A stretch of 6,858 nucleotides of DNA. Source: an uncultured Treponema sp. Its GTDB lineage: Bacteria > Spirochaetota > Spirochaetia > Treponematales > Treponemataceae. A model generated the notes under the pieces. The model was not told the origin of the DNA and ran no database searches. It saw only the letters and a program-made list of their open reading frames with translations. Every line of letters begins with the position of its first letter. Position 1 is the stretch's first letter. Positions 1-6,651 of the stretch are shown in pieces. The stretch is from NCBI GenBank assembly GCA_947165795.1, contig CAMVBP010000110.1, positions 1 to 6,858 on the forward strand, in the 5' to 3' direction. Both the position numbers and the translations under genes were made by a program.

Positions 1-523
1 TGATGTTGTTGTCACCTGGGTCACCTGTGAAGAATTCCATGTAAACTGGATCATCAGCTGTACGTGTCTTAAGTCCGAGTTTGTCTACGAGGTAATCACC
101 CTGGATTGTACCTACTTTGTAGTTATCGAATGTAGCATAGTAAGAAACTGCTTTTGAGTTCATGATAAGACGGTCATAAGCAATAACTTTAATGTCCTTC
201 TTTTTAGCTGTTTCAAGAACGTTTGAAAGAGCTGTACCATCGATAGATGCAATTACAAGTACTTTACATCCACTTGTAATCATGTTTTCAAGCTGAGAAA
301 CCTGTGTTGGGATATCATTAGCTGCATACTGAAGGTCTACTGTGTAGCCAGCTTTTTCGAGCTGAGCCTTCATGTTTGCACCGTCCTGATTCCAGCGCTG
401 TAAATCTTTTGTAGGCATAGAAACACCAACTTTTGTTGATGAACTTGCGCCACCACAACTTACCAAGCTCAATGAAAATGCAGCGAGTACTACTGAGCAG
501 AGAATAGCAATAAATTTTTTCAT
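1..523 (-). CDS. chvE: ChvE-type multiple sugar-binding lipoprotein, 5' part only
   Basis: This is the extracytoplasmic substrate-binding component of a monosaccharide ABC transporter; 174 codons are present and the C-terminal half lies beyond the left edge. Residues 1-22 are a lipoprotein signal peptide (MKK, hydrophobic core, LVSC with Cys23 as the lipidation site), so the mature protein should be membrane-anchored. The rest follows ChvE closely: VGVSMPTK near residue 32, QRWNQDG at 42-48, LQYAAND at 64-70, VLVIASIDGT at 88-97, VIAYDRLI at 113-120, SYYATFDN at 127-134 and a GDPGDNN segment near 167-173. These belong to the N-terminal lobe of the type 1 periplasmic-binding fold. ATG at 523 is supported by AGGAG 11 bases upstream. 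It follows the sensor operon after 236 bases in the same direction, and in relatives gguA/gguB-type ATPase and permease genes come next. ChvE proteins bind several aldoses, so the exact sugar is not predictable. The family call is firm; the symbol rests on motif similarity. Confidence 0.93.
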   Translation of the reverse strand, partial: MKKFIAILCSVVLAAFSLSLVSCGGASSSTKVGVSMPTKDLQRWNQDGANMKAQLEKAGYTVDLQYAANDIPTQVSQLENMITSGCKVLVIASIDGTALSNVLETAKKKDIKVIAYDRLIMNSKAVSYYATFDNYKVGTIQGDYLVDKLGLKTRTADDPVYMEFFTGDPGDNNI

Positions 524-534
524 AAGAAAAAACA

Positions 535-539
535 CTCCT
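535..539 (-). promoter_or_regulatory. Ribosome binding site of the ChvE-like gene
   Basis: AGGAG on the minus strand lies 11 bases before the ATG at 523. The spacing is slightly long but the match is good, and it fixes the start at the Met that opens a complete lipoprotein signal peptide. Confidence 0.75.
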
Positions 540-610: not shown

Positions 611-619
611 ATCAAAAAT
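601..619. repeat. 11-base-period direct repeat over the chvE -35 area
   Basis: TCAAAAAT occurs at 601-608 and again at 612-619 (ATTTTTGA read toward chvE), offset by 11 bases, about one helical turn. AraC-family proteins commonly bind direct half-sites on one face of the helix next to or overlapping the -35, so this is a candidate site for the YesN-type regulator. The repeat is A/T-rich and short, so chance is a real alternative. Confidence 0.35.
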
Positions 620-655
620 CTAAAAAAAATTGTTATTTTATTATTCTAAGAGGAA

Positions 656-667
656 TTCCCGAGGGAA
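656..667. repeat. 12-base palindrome upstream of the chvE promoter
   Basis: TTCCC-GA-GGGAA has 5-base perfect arms around GA and stands out as a G/C-containing island in very AT-rich DNA, roughly 70-80 bases upstream of the candidate -10. The position suits an upstream operator, but no known regulator motif is recognised. Confidence 0.3.
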
Positions 668-759
668 AAATTTGTGGAAAATCTAGAATTTTTTGTGATT
701 TAAATTGTGCTAATTTCTGAAATTGAGGAATAAATCAGGAAAAAACTGTGCTTGACGGC

Positions 760-1812
760 TTATTTATAAATAGAAGCGGCGCTGTGAAATCCAGATTCAA
801 TAATAACTTTGTCGATATTATATTTATCTACATAAACAGGCTGCAGCCAGATAGACGAAACATCATCAAAACCATTATAAATTGAACGGATTTTATAGTT
901 TCTGACTTCTATAGCCTCATTTCTTGCAAGATGAACGGCGCATTCTGCCGCATATTCAGCAAGGCTTATAATTGGTTTATAAATTGTAAAGTCCTGTTTT
1001 CCCTGCACAATATACTGGCATGCGGCAATGTCTGCATCCTGACCGCATATATGAACCTTTTCTTCCGGTGCGTAAAGGTCCAGCGCCTGAATAATACTTG
1101 CAGCAACTGCATCATTTCCGCAGATAATCGCATCGGGAATTGTGTCTTCTTTAATTATTCTGACCATTTCCTGGTAAGATAAATCGTAGTTCCAGCCTTC
1201 TGTATAAAAAATGTGATTTATGGAAACATCTGTATTTCTTAAAATTCTATCCAGTCCCTGCTGAATCAAAGTCATATTATAATCTTCTTCGGCGCCAAGA
1301 ATGCAGTACCAGTTTTTGCCGGTTGTAAACCTGAGCATTTCAGAAGCCATGTATTCTCCAACAGTTTCGCTGTCGATTGTAAGATACAAATTAACGTCTG
1401 CATTTAAAACAAGGCGGTCATAAGAAATAATTGGAATTCCTTTTGCACGTATTTTTTGAACGCTGTCTGTAAGTGTAGACGCGTCTTTTGGTAAAACAAC
1501 AATGGCATCGCAATTTCTTTCCAGCAGATACATTAACTGGCGGTTTTGTTCTTCAACACTGTTTCCGGCATTTTGAACGATTACTTCTCCGCCCATCTCG
1601 CGGACTTTATTTATAAAAATATCAAGGTCGCGCTGCCAGCGTTCAATTGCAAGTGTATCTATAGAAAATCCTATTGTAAGCTTATGCTCCTGAACTGATT
1701 TTGAATTTGTATTCTGCAGGCTTCCGTTATTTTTTTTACAGGAAAAAAATAAAAGCGAAAAAATAAGCGTAAACAAAATAGGGCATTTTTTAAATTTACA
1801 TTTTAAAATCAT
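760..1812 (-). CDS. xylF: XylF-like sugar-binding lipoprotein
   Basis: This 350-residue protein is a type 1 periplasmic sugar-binding protein that resembles E. coli D-xylose-binding XylF along its whole length. Residues 1-24 form a lipoprotein signal with Cys25 as the modified residue; Phe at -3 and -2 departs from the enterobacterial lipobox but is tolerated in spirochaetes. Family landmarks in order: IGFSIDTL..ERWQRD at 47-62, YDR at 131-133, EGW at 205-207, CGNDAVAA at 231-238, GQDAD at 257-261, TIYKP at 276-280 and a XylF-like C-terminus (IIESGFH near 337-343). The Trp, Asn, Asp and Lys in these motifs fall in segments lining the xylose pocket of XylF. ATG at 1812 has AGGAGA just upstream. 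It is the last gene of the sensor operon, 19 bases after the response regulator, with no ATPase or permease of its own directly following. It may therefore serve in sensing, or feed a transporter encoded elsewhere. Ligand xylose or a similar pentose is inferred. Confidence 0.92.
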   Translation of the reverse strand: MILKCKFKKCPILFTLIFSLLFFSCKKNNGSLQNTNSKSVQEHKLTIGFSIDTLAIERWQRDLDIFINKVREMGGEVIVQNAGNSVEEQNRQLMYLLERNCDAIVVLPKDASTLTDSVQKIRAKGIPIISYDRLVLNADVNLYLTIDSETVGEYMASEMLRFTTGKNWYCILGAEEDYNMTLIQQGLDRILRNTDVSINHIFYTEGWNYDLSYQEMVRIIKEDTIPDAIICGNDAVAASIIQALDLYAPEEKVHICGQDADIAACQYIVQGKQDFTIYKPIISLAEYAAECAVHLARNEAIEVRNYKIRSIYNGFDDVSSIWLQPVYVDKYNIDKVIIESGFHSAASIYK

Positions 1813-1817
1813 CTGTT

Positions 1818-1823
1818 TCTCCT
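1818..1823 (-). promoter_or_regulatory. Ribosome binding site of the XylF-like gene
   Basis: AGGAGA lies 5 bases before the ATG at 1812, inside the 19-base gap after the response-regulator stop codon. It is the strongest Shine-Dalgarno sequence of the operon and suggests that this gene is translated independently of the coupled genes upstream. Confidence 0.8.
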
Positions 1824-1831
1824 GAATCCTT

Positions 1832-3487
1832 TTAATTTCCTGCAGTATTTACTGTTGATTGATTAGACTTTCTGTATTCTTTTGGAGAAAGTCCGTATTT
1901 ATTTTTAAAGATTCTGCTGAAATAATTCTGATCATTATAACCGGTGCTTGCAGTAATTTCTTTAATGGAAAGTTCAGTTTCTTCAAGCATGAGCCTTGCT
2001 TTTTCCAGGCGCTTTTCTGAAACAAAATTGATAAAGGTTTCTCCTTTTTCTTCCCTGAATAATTTGCTTAAGTAAAATGAACTTACTCCAACGGAATCGG
2101 CAGCCATTTCCAGAGAAAATTCCTGCGAGATATTTTCTTCTATATATGTAAGCACTTTTTTTATTATAGGATTTTCCTGCTGCTGCTTTATGTTAAGAAT
2201 TGAATCTGCACATTCAGACAAAAATTTGAGGGTAAATTCCTTTATCATCTTAATATCATTTTCTGAGCTTAAAATTGAAAAAGCATTGTCGAACATTTCA
2301 CTTCTAAAATCTTTGCATATCTGCTTTGTCGTATTGTTAGCGGTAACTATCAGTTCAAAAAATGAATTCTTAATTTTGTTGAGATAATTATTCTGGCTCG
2401 TAATTTTTTCCGAAGTCTGAGAATCCTGTATGGAATCAGATAAGCTTGATGCTAGCTCTGTGGTAAAAATTTCGAGGAATGTTTTAATTCCGTTTTTATC
2501 GCCGGAACACAGTTTGTTGATTATCTGATTAAAGATAGAAGTTGCCGAAGATGAATCTTTTTCTTTTTGAACATTCTGAGGCTCTTCTGCCTGTTCATCT
2601 ATTTTGGAAGCAAAAATTAAATCGCCTGCGTTGTTACATCTCGATAAAGCATCAAGTGCTTCTTTATATGAACTCTGTAATTTCTTCTTGTTATTTTCTA
2701 TTGAACTTACTCCGCCTCTAATTCCGGACCCGATGTTATAACTTAAGATTGTATAGATCTTTTTTATCTGTTCATGAATTTCATCCTGATTAGGATTTTC
2801 AGAAAAAATCGGAAAGAAAACGGCAATGCGGTTAAGCATAAATGAACTTACGAGACAACGGTGTTCTGTATTTAATAATTCGTGAATTTTTAAATAAGTA
2901 TCATATTGATTTTTTGAATTAATATTCGGAAATTCAAAGCAGCAGAAAACCCATGGATTTTCCGAAAGATTAAAATATTCAAGATAGGAATCAAGTTCAG
3001 GCGCTGTTTCGTTATTGAAAATACATGCATAAATAAAATCGTTTTCAATCATCGGCGAAACTAAATCAAGTTTCTTATGAAGCTCAAGATCTGCGCTTAA
3101 TTTTCCTTTTTTTTCTTCAACAAGTTTTATGGCACCCTGAATTGTTTCTATAACTACATTTCTGTTTACAGGTTTAGTAATATATTTATATGCTCCAAGA
3201 GTAATTGCTTCCTGCGCATACTGAAAGCGGTCAAAGGCGCTTAAGATTACAAAAACAATATTCGGTTTTAATTTTGTAATTACACTTACAGTTTCAAGTC
3301 CGCTTAAACCTGGCATATTGATATCCATAAAAATAATATCAATGTTTTCTTTCATTACAATTTCTATGGCTTCGGTTCCGGAAAGGGCAGTAAAAATTTT
3401 TGTGTTGTCTGCAAAGTTTTTGCTTATGATATAAGATAGAGAATCAATTACAATCTGTTCATCATCTGTTACTAAAATATTAAACAT
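1832..3487 (-). CDS. YesN-type response regulator, receiver plus AraC DNA-binding domain
   Basis: This 551-residue cytoplasmic transcription factor is the partner of the kinase encoded just upstream. Residues 1-120 are a CheY-like receiver: acidic pocket D8-D9, phospho-acceptor D55 in FMDINMPG, Ser83 in ILSAFD and Lys105 in ITKPV are all present, so it should accept phosphate. About residues 145-290 form a middle domain with features of the degenerate GGDEF-like domains of YesN/CdaR proteins (IGSGIRGG, then SYKEALDAL), without catalytic GGDEF. A low-complexity linker (E/Q/S-rich, about 295-315) and a helical region follow. The last 110 residues are an AraC/XylS double helix-turn-helix: SLEMAADSVGVSSFYLSKLF and the second helix pair with GYNDQNYFSRIFKNKYGLSP. 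ATG at 3487 overlaps the kinase stop by 8 bases and has AGGA 9 bases upstream. It probably activates sugar-uptake genes such as the adjacent chvE; the target is inferred. Confidence 0.95.
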   Translation of the reverse strand: MFNILVTDDEQIVIDSLSYIISKNFADNTKIFTALSGTEAIEIVMKENIDIIFMDINMPGLSGLETVSVITKLKPNIVFVILSAFDRFQYAQEAITLGAYKYITKPVNRNVVIETIQGAIKLVEEKKGKLSADLELHKKLDLVSPMIENDFIYACIFNNETAPELDSYLEYFNLSENPWVFCCFEFPNINSKNQYDTYLKIHELLNTEHRCLVSSFMLNRIAVFFPIFSENPNQDEIHEQIKKIYTILSYNIGSGIRGGVSSIENNKKKLQSSYKEALDALSRCNNAGDLIFASKIDEQAEEPQNVQKEKDSSSATSIFNQIINKLCSGDKNGIKTFLEIFTTELASSLSDSIQDSQTSEKITSQNNYLNKIKNSFFELIVTANNTTKQICKDFRSEMFDNAFSILSSENDIKMIKEFTLKFLSECADSILNIKQQQENPIIKKVLTYIEENISQEFSLEMAADSVGVSSFYLSKLFREEKGETFINFVSEKRLEKARLMLEETELSIKEITASTGYNDQNYFSRIFKNKYGLSPKEYRKSNQSTVNTAGN

Positions 3488-4991
3488 GATTTGGAATCCT
3501 AATTATAAATTTTGTACCTTTTCCGTTTTCGCCGTTACGGATATCAAATAAATCATCACAATGAAACTGAAGCTGAAGCCTTAAAAATACGCTTATTAAT
3601 CCGGTTCCGTTATGAGAAGAATCTTTTTTATTTTTATAAAGTTCCTGCGGAAGCTGAGGGTTTTCATGAGCAACGGCATAAAAAACTGCTTCTTTAATTT
3701 CATCACTCATTCCTTCTCCGTTATCAGAAATACTTATTACAATGAATTTTTCTTCATGCTCAACCTGCAGATGAACTTTTCCTTTTGATCTTTTTAATCC
3801 GTGTTTAATACAGTTTTCTACTAACGGCTGAAGAGTCATTGCAGGTATTTGCTGAGAGAATTTTTCCTGGGGAATATCTTTAGTAAATTCCAGACGGTTC
3901 CCAAAGCGAACTTTCATTATATAAACAAAATTATCTACTAATCCAAGTTCTTCGTCAATTGAGACAGTTCTGCTTTGCTGCTGAATATTGTAGCGGAAGA
4001 AATCGGCAACCTGTTCAATAAAGTAGCAGGTCTTGTCCGCGTTTTCCATCATTGCAAGCTGTGCGCCGGTATTCAATGTGTTAAAAAGGAAATGCGGATT
4101 TACCTGATTTTGAAGAGCCCTTAATTGAGCGTCTGTATAAAGCGCCTGCATTTCAATTTCTTTTTCCTTTAATTCTGCTTCGGTGCGGGCTTTTTCCCAA
4201 ATAGTATCAATGTATTCGCGGATGCTTATAATCATTCTGTCAAAGGCTGTACAGATTGTTCCAATTTCGTTATTTGAATTTTTATTAAACAGAGGAACAT
4301 CAAAATTTCTTCGTGCAACCTTATGTGCTACTTCGGAAATTTCTGCAAGCGGTTCCATAATGGAAGTAATGGTAAAATAGAGAATGAAGAAAATTAATAT
4401 AGCAAACACAAGGAAGAAGATAATACTGATAACATTAATAAAAATAATTTTGTGCCGGCTTTCGCTGTATTGAAGCCCGTTTTCCTGAAGGCGGAGGTTA
4501 TTCAATTCCAGAATCTGCGACTGAAGATAGTTATAGCAGGTAAGCGTGTAAGTGTAATAATCATTAAGCTCATCAATAGCATTTGCACGGCGCGCCTGAA
4601 TTGCATTTGAGCTGTAAAATAAAAAGGCTTCCGTAAGCTGGTGAACAATATATTCTTTATGTAAAACTTCATTCTTAGAAGGGAAATTCTGTAATGTATT
4701 ATAGAAGTCTTCAACTTTATTTTTAGAATTATAATAGGCATCTATACTTTCGAAGGTTCTGTAGTTTACGTAGTTTTCCATGGAATTTTCCGTATCTATA
4801 AGCAGCTTAGAAAATTCGGTCAGTTCAGAATTTGATTTATAAGAGTTTCCGAGATTGCGTGTAGAAATGTTTGTAAGGCGCATAGTAATTGTAACGCTTG
4901 AAGCAAGCATAATAATTGCTATTCCAATACAGAACATTATTCGCCAGCGGAGAGTTTTATTTCTAAAATAATTTATAAGTTTAATTTTCAT
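3480..4991 (-). CDS. YesM/LytS-type sensor histidine kinase
   Basis: This is a 503-residue membrane sensor kinase. Transmembrane helix 1 spans about 19-37 and helix 2 about 182-208. Between them lies an outer domain of about 140 residues that appears mainly helical and has no recognisable ligand-binding fold, as expected when a separate binding protein supplies ligand recognition. A HAMP domain (about 209-262) and a coiled-coil linker (about 263-292) lead to the His_kinase module: H300 in QNQVNPHFLFNTLN is the phospho-accepting His. The ATP-binding part has the N box LQPLVENCIKHGL (388-399, N393), the G1 box SDNGEGM (422-428) and the G2 box NGTGL (461-465), so it looks active. The start overlaps the preceding gene's stop by 11 bases and lacks a clear Shine-Dalgarno sequence (only AAAAGAATCCG precedes ATG), which points to translational coupling. 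Partners are the response regulator overlapping its 3' end and probably the binding protein upstream. Confidence 0.95.
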   Translation of the reverse strand: MKIKLINYFRNKTLRWRIMFCIGIAIIMLASSVTITMRLTNISTRNLGNSYKSNSELTEFSKLLIDTENSMENYVNYRTFESIDAYYNSKNKVEDFYNTLQNFPSKNEVLHKEYIVHQLTEAFLFYSSNAIQARRANAIDELNDYYTYTLTCYNYLQSQILELNNLRLQENGLQYSESRHKIIFINVISIIFFLVFAILIFFILYFTITSIMEPLAEISEVAHKVARRNFDVPLFNKNSNNEIGTICTAFDRMIISIREYIDTIWEKARTEAELKEKEIEMQALYTDAQLRALQNQVNPHFLFNTLNTGAQLAMMENADKTCYFIEQVADFFRYNIQQQSRTVSIDEELGLVDNFVYIMKVRFGNRLEFTKDIPQEKFSQQIPAMTLQPLVENCIKHGLKRSKGKVHLQVEHEEKFIVISISDNGEGMSDEIKEAVFYAVAHENPQLPQELYKNKKDSSHNGTGLISVFLRLQLQFHCDDLFDIRNGENGKGTKFIIRIPNHV

Positions 4992-5973
4992 CGGATTCTT
5001 TTATACTCTTTGTGATTTTTACATCCGCTGTAACATAACTGTTTGCATATCCTTTGTTTCTATATTCAAACAGTTCCTTTAAAGCCGCACTTCCAATTTT
5101 TTCAGGATCAAGAGAAATTAATTCTGCAATAAATCCTTTCTGCAGATAAAGCTGGCAAACTTCACTGCTTCCAAAACCAATTATTTTAATCTGTTTTTCC
5201 AGACCAAATTCCGAGACAATTTGCGCTGTAGAAATTGTGTCTTCTTCGTTAAGACAAATAAGAACGTATGGAGGAGTTTTTGAAGTATTTGTAAGTTCAT
5301 AATCAAAAACGGCTGTCGACGTAAATTTTTCTATAACTTTAATATTAAGCGAAGGATCCTGCTGCAAGGATAATTGAAGGCTGTTTATAAGGTTGCTGGA
5401 ATTTATGGTTACCTGACCGCTTATAATCATTACGTTTTTTGTATGATTTTCAAGCATTGCCAGACGTGCTTCATCAGAAATCTTTTTACCCATTTCCCAA
5501 AAGTTACTTCCGATATAAGAAACCTGCGGAAGCTCCGAAGCAAATTGTCCTATTGTTACAAGTGGAATTTCTGCTTCATCATTTCTTGTAAGGAAAACCG
5601 GAAGTTCATCTGTTGAATCTATATAGGCAATAATTCCGTCTACGTTTAAAAATGAACAGTAATCAAAAAGTGTCTGAAGTGAATTGCTCTGGGCTTCTGA
5701 CTGCGGTACATGAAGTTCAATTACAGCGTTGTAATCTTTGGAAAGATTATCTGCACCTGTAAAAACCTGTTCCAGAAAATCCTTGTTTTCATAAGTTCCC
5801 GTTATAATTATATGGTACAGATAAGTATCGTCTTTGTTCTGATTATCTGAGGAGCCTGCCTTGTTTGTGGACTGAAGGATCTGAATAATAAAAATTGCAA
5901 AAAAGACAAAGAAAATAAAAACGGAAAAAATTAAGAGAATCCATTTTATTTTTCTTGCCAGCTTTTTTTCCAT
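4981..5973 (-). CDS. Membrane-anchored periplasmic-binding-protein-like sensor subunit (XylFII-like)
   Basis: This is a 330-residue protein with a short basic N-terminus (MEKKLARKIK), one hydrophobic helix at about 11-32 and an extracytoplasmic type 1 periplasmic-binding/LacI-like domain (about 51-320). There is no lipobox Cys and no obvious cleavage site, so the helix is probably an uncleaved anchor. Fold landmarks: VDGIIAYID at 111-119, IPLVTIG at 136-142, SYIGSNFWEMGKKISDEA near 152-169, VMIISG at 181-186, VLICLNEEDT at 237-246 and IIGFGSSE at 264-271. The segment where sugar-binding relatives often carry an Asn-Asp pair reads NEED here, so the ligand set may differ. It is the first gene of the operon and overlaps the histidine kinase by 11 bases. 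Anchor, fold and position match XylFII-type proteins, which bind sugar and signal through the kinase's outer domain instead of delivering it to a transporter. The role is inferred by analogy; sequence similarity to any one characterised member is low by eye. The ATG at 5973 is the only plausible start: an in-frame TAG lies about 30 bases upstream. Confidence 0.85.
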   Translation of the reverse strand: MEKKLARKIKWILLIFSVFIFFVFFAIFIIQILQSTNKAGSSDNQNKDDTYLYHIIITGTYENKDFLEQVFTGADNLSKDYNAVIELHVPQSEAQSNSLQTLFDYCSFLNVDGIIAYIDSTDELPVFLTRNDEAEIPLVTIGQFASELPQVSYIGSNFWEMGKKISDEARLAMLENHTKNVMIISGQVTINSSNLINSLQLSLQQDPSLNIKVIEKFTSTAVFDYELTNTSKTPPYVLICLNEEDTISTAQIVSEFGLEKQIKIIGFGSSEVCQLYLQKGFIAELISLDPEKIGSAALKELFEYRNKGYANSYVTADVKITKSIKESDEN

Positions 5974-5980
5974 AAAAAAA

Positions 5981-6009
5981 ATTATATCACAAAAATTGCC
6001 GGGTGTCTA
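5981..6009 (-). promoter_or_regulatory. Promoter of the sensor operon, predicted leaderless
   Basis: On the minus strand TAGACA (6004-6009, 5 of 6 to consensus) and a perfect TATAAT (5981-5986) are separated by exactly 17 bases. Only seven T residues lie between the -10 box and the ATG at 5973, so transcription should begin at or within a base or two of the start codon. No Shine-Dalgarno sequence can fit. It is the best promoter-like sequence in the window. Confidence 0.75.
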
Positions 6010-6120: not shown

Positions 6121-6651
6121 ATGAATACATTAGAAGCAATTAAAAATCGTCATAGTTATAGAGGAAAATATAAAGCAATTAAGGTTCCGCGTGAAGATTT
6201 AAATACCATTATGGAAGCCGGACTTGCCGCGCCTTCGGGTTGTAATAAACAGACAACAAGTTTGATTTGTGTTGATGACCCGGAAATTCTAAAAAAGATT
6301 AATGCGGTAATTGAACCGCCAGTTTGCGAAACAGCGCCTGCTCTTATTTGTGTGCTTGGACAAAAAATTAATGCTTATCGGGACAGATGCTTTTACATTC
6401 AGGATTATTCTGCGGCTATTGAAAATATGCTCCTGGCAATTGTTGATCTGGGATATCAAAGCTGCTGGTATGAAGGCCATATTACGGACACAGACAGAAT
6501 TTGTGATAGAATTGCAGAGATTTTAAATGTTCCTTCAGATTATGAACTTGTTTGTATTTTGCCGGTTGGAGTTGCAGAAGCAGACCTGGTTCTTCCAAAG
6601 AAAAAGACTTTCCAGGAAAGAGCCTGGTTTAACGGCTTTAAACAGGCATAG
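6121..6651 (+). CDS. Nitroreductase-family flavoprotein
   Basis: This 176-residue protein belongs to the FMN-dependent nitroreductase family, cytoplasmic enzymes that use NAD(P)H to reduce nitro groups, quinones or related acceptors, usually as dimers. Visible landmarks: the N-terminal phosphate-binding RHSYRGKY (10-17; relatives commonly have RRSxR), LAAPSGCNKQ (35-44), the dimer and FMN segment YIQDYSAAIENMLLAIVDLG (92-111), SCWYEG (114-119) and PVGVAEAD (148-155). At 176 residues it is at the compact end of the family and seems complete, ending in an ERAWFNGF tail. Its natural substrate cannot be read from the sequence. It is transcribed away from the sensor operon from its own promoter and converges on serA, so a functional tie to sugar sensing is unlikely. 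Confidence 0.92.
   Translation: MNTLEAIKNRHSYRGKYKAIKVPREDLNTIMEAGLAAPSGCNKQTTSLICVDDPEILKKINAVIEPPVCETAPALICVLGQKINAYRDRCFYIQDYSAAIENMLLAIVDLGYQSCWYEGHITDTDRICDRIAEILNVPSDYELVCILPVGVAEADLVLPKKKTFQERAWFNGFKQA

What the first reader, a model, noticed from the sequence alone, without database searches (positions are those of the whole stretch)
760..5973. Probable three-component sugar-sensing operon: anchored binding protein, kinase, regulator, plus an extra XylF-like lipoprotein
Four co-directional, overlapping or closely spaced genes encode an anchored type 1 binding protein, a YesM/LytS kinase with a featureless helical outer domain, a YesN regulator and a XylF-like lipoprotein. The first three match the layout of the XylFII-LytS-YesN xylose-sensing system known from Clostridium. 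Finding it in a likely spirochaete, with a second full-length sugar-binding lipoprotein inside the same operon, would be a variant in which two binding proteins could feed one kinase.
Basis: partly seen in the sequence, partly recalled or inferred. Interest (0 to 1): 0.72.

Follow-up and report, generated by a model that had tools for sequence, protein, structure and literature searches.

The report
Sugar-sensing operon with paired binding proteins
A Treponema-like spirochaete carries a four-gene sugar-sensing switch in which the membrane-anchored sensor protein seems to have lost its sugar pocket while a second, intact sugar-binding protein is encoded beside it, which suggests a known kind of sensor rebuilt with a division of labour.

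Summary
Four minus-strand genes lie end to end: anchored type-1 binding protein (P), LytS-type kinase (S), YesN regulator (T) and XylF-like lipoprotein (X). P's nearest solved structures by Foldseek are XylFII and GanP, and the modelled kinase outer domain matches that of LytS, so this is the XylFII-LytS-YesN kind of system. P-S-T-X stands in 18 of 18 relatives whose contig reaches X, in 41 of 43 further spirochaete loci, and in one Clostridia record. First, P has lost four polar pocket positions kept in XylFII and GanP (Asp at the XylFII D103 column in 0 of 73 relatives), whereas X keeps its pocket in 75 relatives with two small exceptions. Second, X goes with the sensor, not the transporter: median gap to T is 1 nt, and its divergence follows S and P rather than the neighbouring transporter. 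A pair of direct repeats 63 nt apart lies just upstream of the transporter gene chvE in the window and in 9 of 14 near genomes, so ChvE-GguAB is the likely target. Best reading: X is the sugar-binding input, P a pocket-less coupling subunit. Contacts of X, P and S were not tested. New variant of a known kind.

The parts
4981..5973 (-). P: anchored type-1 (Peripla_BP_4) binding protein of the XylFII/GanP/AraP kind, pocket positions replaced (G142, L195, G268, L288)
   Evidence: ORF; Pfam; PDB sequence matches; AF2 model pLDDT 81.5; Foldseek/VIA; pocket
3480..4991 (-). S: LytS/YesM-type sensor kinase; outer four-helix bundle about residues 49-170, HAMP 207-259, His_kinase 288-367, HATPase 386-501
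1832..3487 (-). T: YesN-type response regulator (receiver + AraC-type HTH)
760..1812 (-). X: XylF-like lipoprotein with intact monosaccharide-type pocket (R58, W59, D132, R133, D177, N179, W207, N233, D259, K279)
616..695 (-). candidate operator: direct repeats at 695-679 and 632-616, start to start 63 nt
2..535 (-). C: ChvE-like transporter binding protein, cut by the window edge; ORF start GTG 535, likelier start ATG 523
   Evidence: full-length homologue in L016 passes the ChvE cut-off and is followed by GguA and GguB

Best explanation
P-S-T-X is one signalling operon: a LytS/YesN sugar-response system with a pair of binding proteins. X, the lipoprotein with the intact pocket, binds a monosaccharide (which one is not known). 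P, anchored in the membrane and probably seated on the four-helix outer domain of S as XylFII is on LytS, no longer binds sugar in the usual way and acts as the coupling subunit. Sugar-loaded X docks on P and/or S and switches the kinase; S phosphorylates T; T binds two direct repeats 63 nt apart in front of chvE and raises the ChvE-GguA-GguB transporter. Shown by computation: gene order, family of each part, loss of the pocket positions in P and their retention in X, X's linkage and shared divergence with S, P and T, the conserved repeat pair in front of chvE. Inferred: every physical contact, the direction of control, T as the protein that binds the repeats, the ligand.
Against: No complex was modelled; nothing shows X touching P or S. 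Two genomes (G154, G156) carry a paralogous P'-S'-T' beside C-A-M with no X next to it, and P' has also lost the pocket, so pocket loss in P does not require an adjacent X. P of A. noterae keeps the Asp at the D103 column while losing the other three. P could bind another ligand: 62 columns are invariant among 41 close P, some of them polar and near the cleft by alignment. The strict repeat pair is absent from 5 of 14 near genomes and from the first 600,000 of 784,887 bases of L053-L111; with up to 3 mismatches paired sites remain in some of these. G005 and G114 have identical sites, so the nine are not all independent. Block inheritance of P-S-T-X could give the distance correlations without contact. 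Start codons of X were chosen by a rule of mine.
Confidence: 0.55

Rival explanations
1. Ordinary three-component sensor: P senses by itself, with a non-sugar ligand or a non-canonical sugar site; X is a passenger that supplies sugar to ChvE-GguAB as a second transport binding protein.
For: X belongs to the XylF/ChvE family of transport binding proteins; a ChvE-like gene follows X on the same strand within 3 kb in 36 of 60 loci with a close X; P keeps conserved residues in close relatives; P'-S'-T' exists without an adjacent X.
Against: X stays with T when C-A-M is elsewhere or on the other strand with its own binding protein; X divergence does not follow C or A once S and T are accounted for; X is short-coupled to T and 95 nt or more from C; in A. 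noterae X starts with a hydrophobic segment and has no lipobox, as P does.
Confidence: 0.25
2. Dual input: P and X each bind a different ligand and both feed S.
For: Both are kept over long divergence; P is under constraint although its sugar residues are gone.
Against: The four tested sugar-contact positions of P are replaced, mostly by Gly or hydrophobic residues, in nearly all relatives. No candidate ligand for P.
Confidence: 0.15
3. X is a co-operonic binding protein for a chemoreceptor or another partner, with no part in this kinase.
For: Binding proteins can serve chemoreceptors (general knowledge); no contact data here. Neighbours of X other than C, A and M were not annotated, so a receptor gene nearby was not looked for.
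Against: X-S partial correlation 0.46 even given P, T, C and A; tight coupling to T.
Confidence: 0.05

Closest known systems
XylFII-LytS-YesN with XylFGH, Clostridium beijerinckii
   Same: Order of binding protein, LytS kinase, YesN regulator (order recalled; [quoted passage not shown] fold of P and of the kinase outer domain; a sugar ABC transporter downstream in relatives
   Different: P lacks the Asp of D103 and three other checked pocket residues; extra binding protein X between YesN and the transporter, so seven proteins where the passage names six; transporter is ChvE-GguAB, not XylFGH
GanPST and AraPST, Geobacillus stearothermophilus (system names recalled; structures GanP 6gq0, AraP 6sw4, GanS kinase 6swk)
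   Different: GanP keeps D/R/D/Q in the pocket, AraP reads so by eye; I recall no X there
CuaDSR, Ruminiclostridium cellulolyticum (abstract and passages of PMC10384115)
   Same: Separate binding proteins for sensing and for uptake
   Different: The sensing protein CuaD is itself the high-affinity binder; one sensing protein, not two
ChvE-VirA, Agrobacterium (passages of PMC9149312)
   Same: A sugar-loaded protein of the ChvE/XylF kind acts on a kinase outer domain
   Different: No P-like anchored partner (recalled); ChvE also serves transport

Membership tests
XylFII/GanP/AraP-LytS-YesN three-component sugar sensors | Anchored Peripla_BP_4 protein of the XylFII fold encoded first | tested here: met
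XylFII/GanP/AraP-LytS-YesN three-component sugar sensors | Kinase with LytSN-like four-helix outer domain and His_kinase/HATPase core | tested here: met
XylFII/GanP/AraP-LytS-YesN three-component sugar sensors | YesN-type regulator (receiver + AraC HTH) | tested here: met
XylFII/GanP/AraP-LytS-YesN three-component sugar sensors | First-gene binding protein has the sugar pocket (D103 and three further positions) | tested here: not met
   window P has G142, L195, G268, L288; 0 of 73 relatives have D at the D103 column
XylFII/GanP/AraP-LytS-YesN three-component sugar sensors | Binding protein contacts the kinase outer domain | not testable with these tools
   no complex prediction offered
XylF transport binding protein (for X) | Passes the NCBIfam XylF equivalog cut-off | tested here: not met
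   225.1 bits against 389.55
XylF transport binding protein (for X) | Ligand-contact residues of E. coli XylF | tested here: met
   (which residues contact xylose is recalled; the residue types at those numbers match the chain)
XylF transport binding protein (for X) | Encoded with its own XylG/XylH | tested here: not met
   the neighbouring transporter in L016 is ChvE-GguA-GguB with its own binding protein; the window itself ends inside C
ChvE-GguAB transporter (for C-A-M) | NCBIfam ChvE, GguA, GguB cut-offs | tested here: met
   L016: 472.1/460, 823.2/810, 457.8/450; the window holds only the first 178 aa of C (219.3 bits), and C of A. noterae stays below the cut-off (263.2)

The most novel reading that the evidence does not exclude
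A four-component sensor in which the anchored binding protein has become a pseudo-binding protein: it keeps the fold and the kinase seat but not the ligand, and signals only when a second, sugar-loaded binding protein (X) pairs with it. The pair of XylFII molecules in the known complex would be replaced by P and X together, and the P-S-T-X arrangement is old enough to be shared by spirochaetes and Clostridia.
Probability: 0.35. Interest if true: 0.72.

Novelty: new variant of a known kind. Interest (0 to 1): 0.52.

Why it matters
Few binding-protein-assisted kinases have been worked out. A natural system that separates 'binds the sugar' from 'sits on the kinase' would let the two jobs be studied apart, and would show how a three-component sensor gains a replaceable input. 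The P-S-T-X unit recurs across Treponema (8 of the 22 record titles name a rumen, reticulum or omasum), and I found no paper on sugar sensing there in the held library. If P is ligand-blind, naming such genes as sugar sensors would be wrong in many genomes.

Tried and rejected
X as the binding protein of a XylG/XylH transporter: not supported for this locus. Xylose as the settled ligand: not supported (15 of 50 genomes with a close X have xylA; six of the 131 xylA matches are below the family cut-off). The repeat in front of P (autoregulation): none in the window's 157 nt upstream of P with up to 3 mismatches; not scanned in relatives. A look at the window's own genome: not held. The PNAS paper on the XylFII-LytS structure is not held, so the weight of D103 rests on the PDB title of 5xsd and its sequence; the mutated letter is position 107 of that chain as numbered by HMMER, which equals 103 only with an offset of four. 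Foldseek for the kinase did not list LytSN among its 50 rows; VIA did. Paper searches that showed me no account of this operon in Treponema: listings only; they cover the held open-access library alone. Rows dropped: I entered the P hits down to 82.9 bits and left out weaker ones, so '39 of 86 weaker X hits have P upstream' is a lower bound; P and X hits cut by contig ends were not set apart. L099 and L100 gave no X in my ORF call and are in no pocket count. Lipobox: my pattern found one in 58 of 75 X; at least L011 (PLSCKK) is missed by the pattern's strictness; for P it found 1 of 73.
Full report
1. What is there. The window holds, on the minus strand, P (4981-5973), S (3480-4991), T (1832-3487) and X (760-1812), with overlaps of 11 and 8 nt and a 19-nt gap. 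Pfam gives Peripla_BP_4 for P and X, HAMP/His_kinase/HATPase_c for S and receiver plus AraC HTH for T. A fifth gene, C, starts at 535 (GTG) or, more likely, 523 (ATG after AGGAG), and leaves the window; it is ChvE-like. The closest relative found, L016 (Spirochaetales MAG, JAQXNX010000012.1; P 94%, S 97%, T 94%, X 96%, C 98% over the part in the window), continues C with an ATPase and a permease that pass the GguA and GguB cut-offs; its C passes the ChvE cut-off.

3. Conservation of the operon. A scan of genome contigs with the P alignment gave 22 loci, all titled Treponema, Spirochaetaceae or Spirochaetales; 18 reach X and all 18 read P-S-T-X (L012's X is cut by the contig end); 4 end earlier. 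In 291 genomes drawn from the order of T. bryantii B25 (G005; some of the 22 are among them), 50 have an X at 260 bits or more; 49 have a P hit 3-5.5 kb upstream on the same strand, and in the 50th (G195) P-S-X stand together without T. I read 43 of these loci in full (L053-L095): 41 show P-S-T-X, L086 lacks T, and in L094 my ORF filter did not call P and S. Of 52 P hits at 240 bits or more, 49 have such an X; the others are G195 and two P' copies. Among 86 weaker X hits (150-260 bits), at least 39 have P upstream; of 17 such loci read (L096-L112), 8 show P-S-T-X by my labels, 15 have an X called. One Clostridia record, Acetoanaerobium noterae, has P-S-T-X-C-A-M in the same order; there X starts with a hydrophobic segment and shows no lipobox.

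4. The pocket contrast. In XylFII and GanP four polar positions agree: the Asp of VTID, an Arg in the next domain, the Asp of the FD motif and a Gln; AraP reads D, R, D, Q by eye. 5xsd is titled XylFII D103A, and its chain has Ala where 5xsj has Asp, in the VTID column. The window's P has G142, L195, G268, L288. Over 73 P from loci (21 of L001-L021, 42 of L053-L095, 10 of L098-L112): Asp 0 of 73, Arg 0 of 73, Asp of FD 7 of 73, Gln 3 of 73; over the 41 rows of A1 (window included): 0, 0, 0 and 2 of 41. In X, of twelve positions checked against E. coli XylF, ten are kept in 75 of 75, one in 68 (others Glu) and one in 74. C keeps ten of ten in 43 of 43. So the intact pocket is shared by X and C and does not tell the sugar; P is the odd one out. 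Many of these sequences are close kin, so the counts are not independent events.

5. X goes with the sensor. The T-X gap has a median of 1 nt (53 of 59 loci at most 40 nt, overlaps included; start of X chosen by a lipobox rule), while X-C is 95 nt or more with median 185.5 (36 loci). In other genomes different genes follow X and C-A-M lies elsewhere or on the other strand with its own C: ten such transporter loci were fetched and all ten hold C-A-M, L115 only as a 53-56% paralogue. In 20 genomes searched with GguA, 19 have one at 79% identity or more and G122 only one at 58%. Across 35 loci with all six genes, rank correlations of distance matrices are X-S 0.93, X-P 0.91, X-C 0.71, X-A 0.76; given C and A, X-S is 0.82 (0 of 500 label permutations reach it); given S and T, X-C is -0.07. 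The pattern holds for 28 loci up to L095 (0.68 and -0.07), for 21 non-redundant loci (0.79 and 0.00) and for the medians over 300 random subsets of 20 (0.80 and -0.05). Joint inheritance of P-S-T-X as a block could give the same numbers without contact.

6. The likely target. Between X and C an alignable block carries two direct repeats (CAAAAAAT..AGATTT-like) 63 nt apart, ahead of a TATACT-like element; in the window they are 695-679 and 632-616. The strict pair was sought in 14 genomes: nine have one exact hit, and in 9 of 9 it ends 20-84 nt before a ChvE ORF, including G010 where chvE is unlinked from X; G011 has one more with a mismatch elsewhere; five have none; the reversed pattern gives none. 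G005 and G114 have identical sites. In more distant loci the pair is degenerate or not seen, and the strict form is absent from the first 600,000 of 784,887 bases of L053-L111. That T binds it is inference from T's class.

7. Sugar. Xylose isomerase is present in 15 of 50 genomes with a close X, 45 of 71 with a weaker X and 71 of 170 with neither. Xylose as the signal is therefore doubtful for the close-X group.

8. Against my reading. P'-S'-T' in G154 and G156 sit beside C-A-M with no X adjacent, and P' is pocket-less too. They do have an intact binding-protein gene next door (C) and an X elsewhere, but this shows that X is not the only possible partner. P in A. noterae keeps the D103 Asp. 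No contact was computed or measured.

9. Known and new. Three-component LytS-YesN sensors are known; the C. beijerinckii module is called a hexa-protein module (passage in PMC7017829), and separate sensing and uptake binding proteins are described for CuaDSR and others (abstract and passages in PMC10384115). XylFII is said to bind helices H3 and H4 of the LytS four-helix module (passage in PMC9769921) and to bind in both ligand states (passage in PMC6321045). A lipoproteome paper notes a YesM-YesN pair beside both a ChvE-like protein and a second binding protein in Parageobacillus and leaves open which one signals (passage in PMC13068155); that is the nearest printed hint I saw. What I did not find described, in the searches named under Tried and rejected, is the fixed P-S-T-X unit with a pocket-less P. 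I call it a new variant of a known kind.

Noticed in passing
L113 6995-11064 (+) and L114 3947-8019 (-): A second, diverged P'-S'-T' set (P' 32%, S' 41%, T' 37% to the window) follows ChvE-GguA-GguB, with no X beside it; the genomes also have the P-S-T-X set.
   Followed up: partly
L086 4946-8614: P-S-X without a T gene between S and X (genome G195).
   Followed up: no
window 5981-6009 (-): An 11-of-12 promoter-like match with TG before the second hexamer ends 7 nt before the ATG of P, so P's mRNA may be leaderless; a similar layout is seen in L016.
   Followed up: no
L003, L010, L011, L021 just upstream of P: P's start overlaps the last 20 nt of an ORF of about 800 aa preceded by a small ORF; it looks like clpS-clpA (recalled, not searched). 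L016 has other genes there, and the window a nitroreductase gene.
   Followed up: no
window 6121-6651 (+): Nitroreductase-family gene divergent from P; L016 has a different ORF next to P, so the flank varies between close relatives.
   Followed up: no
L021 15392-16495: The ChvE gene of Treponema bryantii NK4A124 reads as two ORFs, with a TAG inside.
   Followed up: no
L133 (NZ_CP154629.1): The Acetoanaerobium noterae record of 2.6 Mb is filed as a plasmid; its size suggests a chromosome.
   Followed up: no
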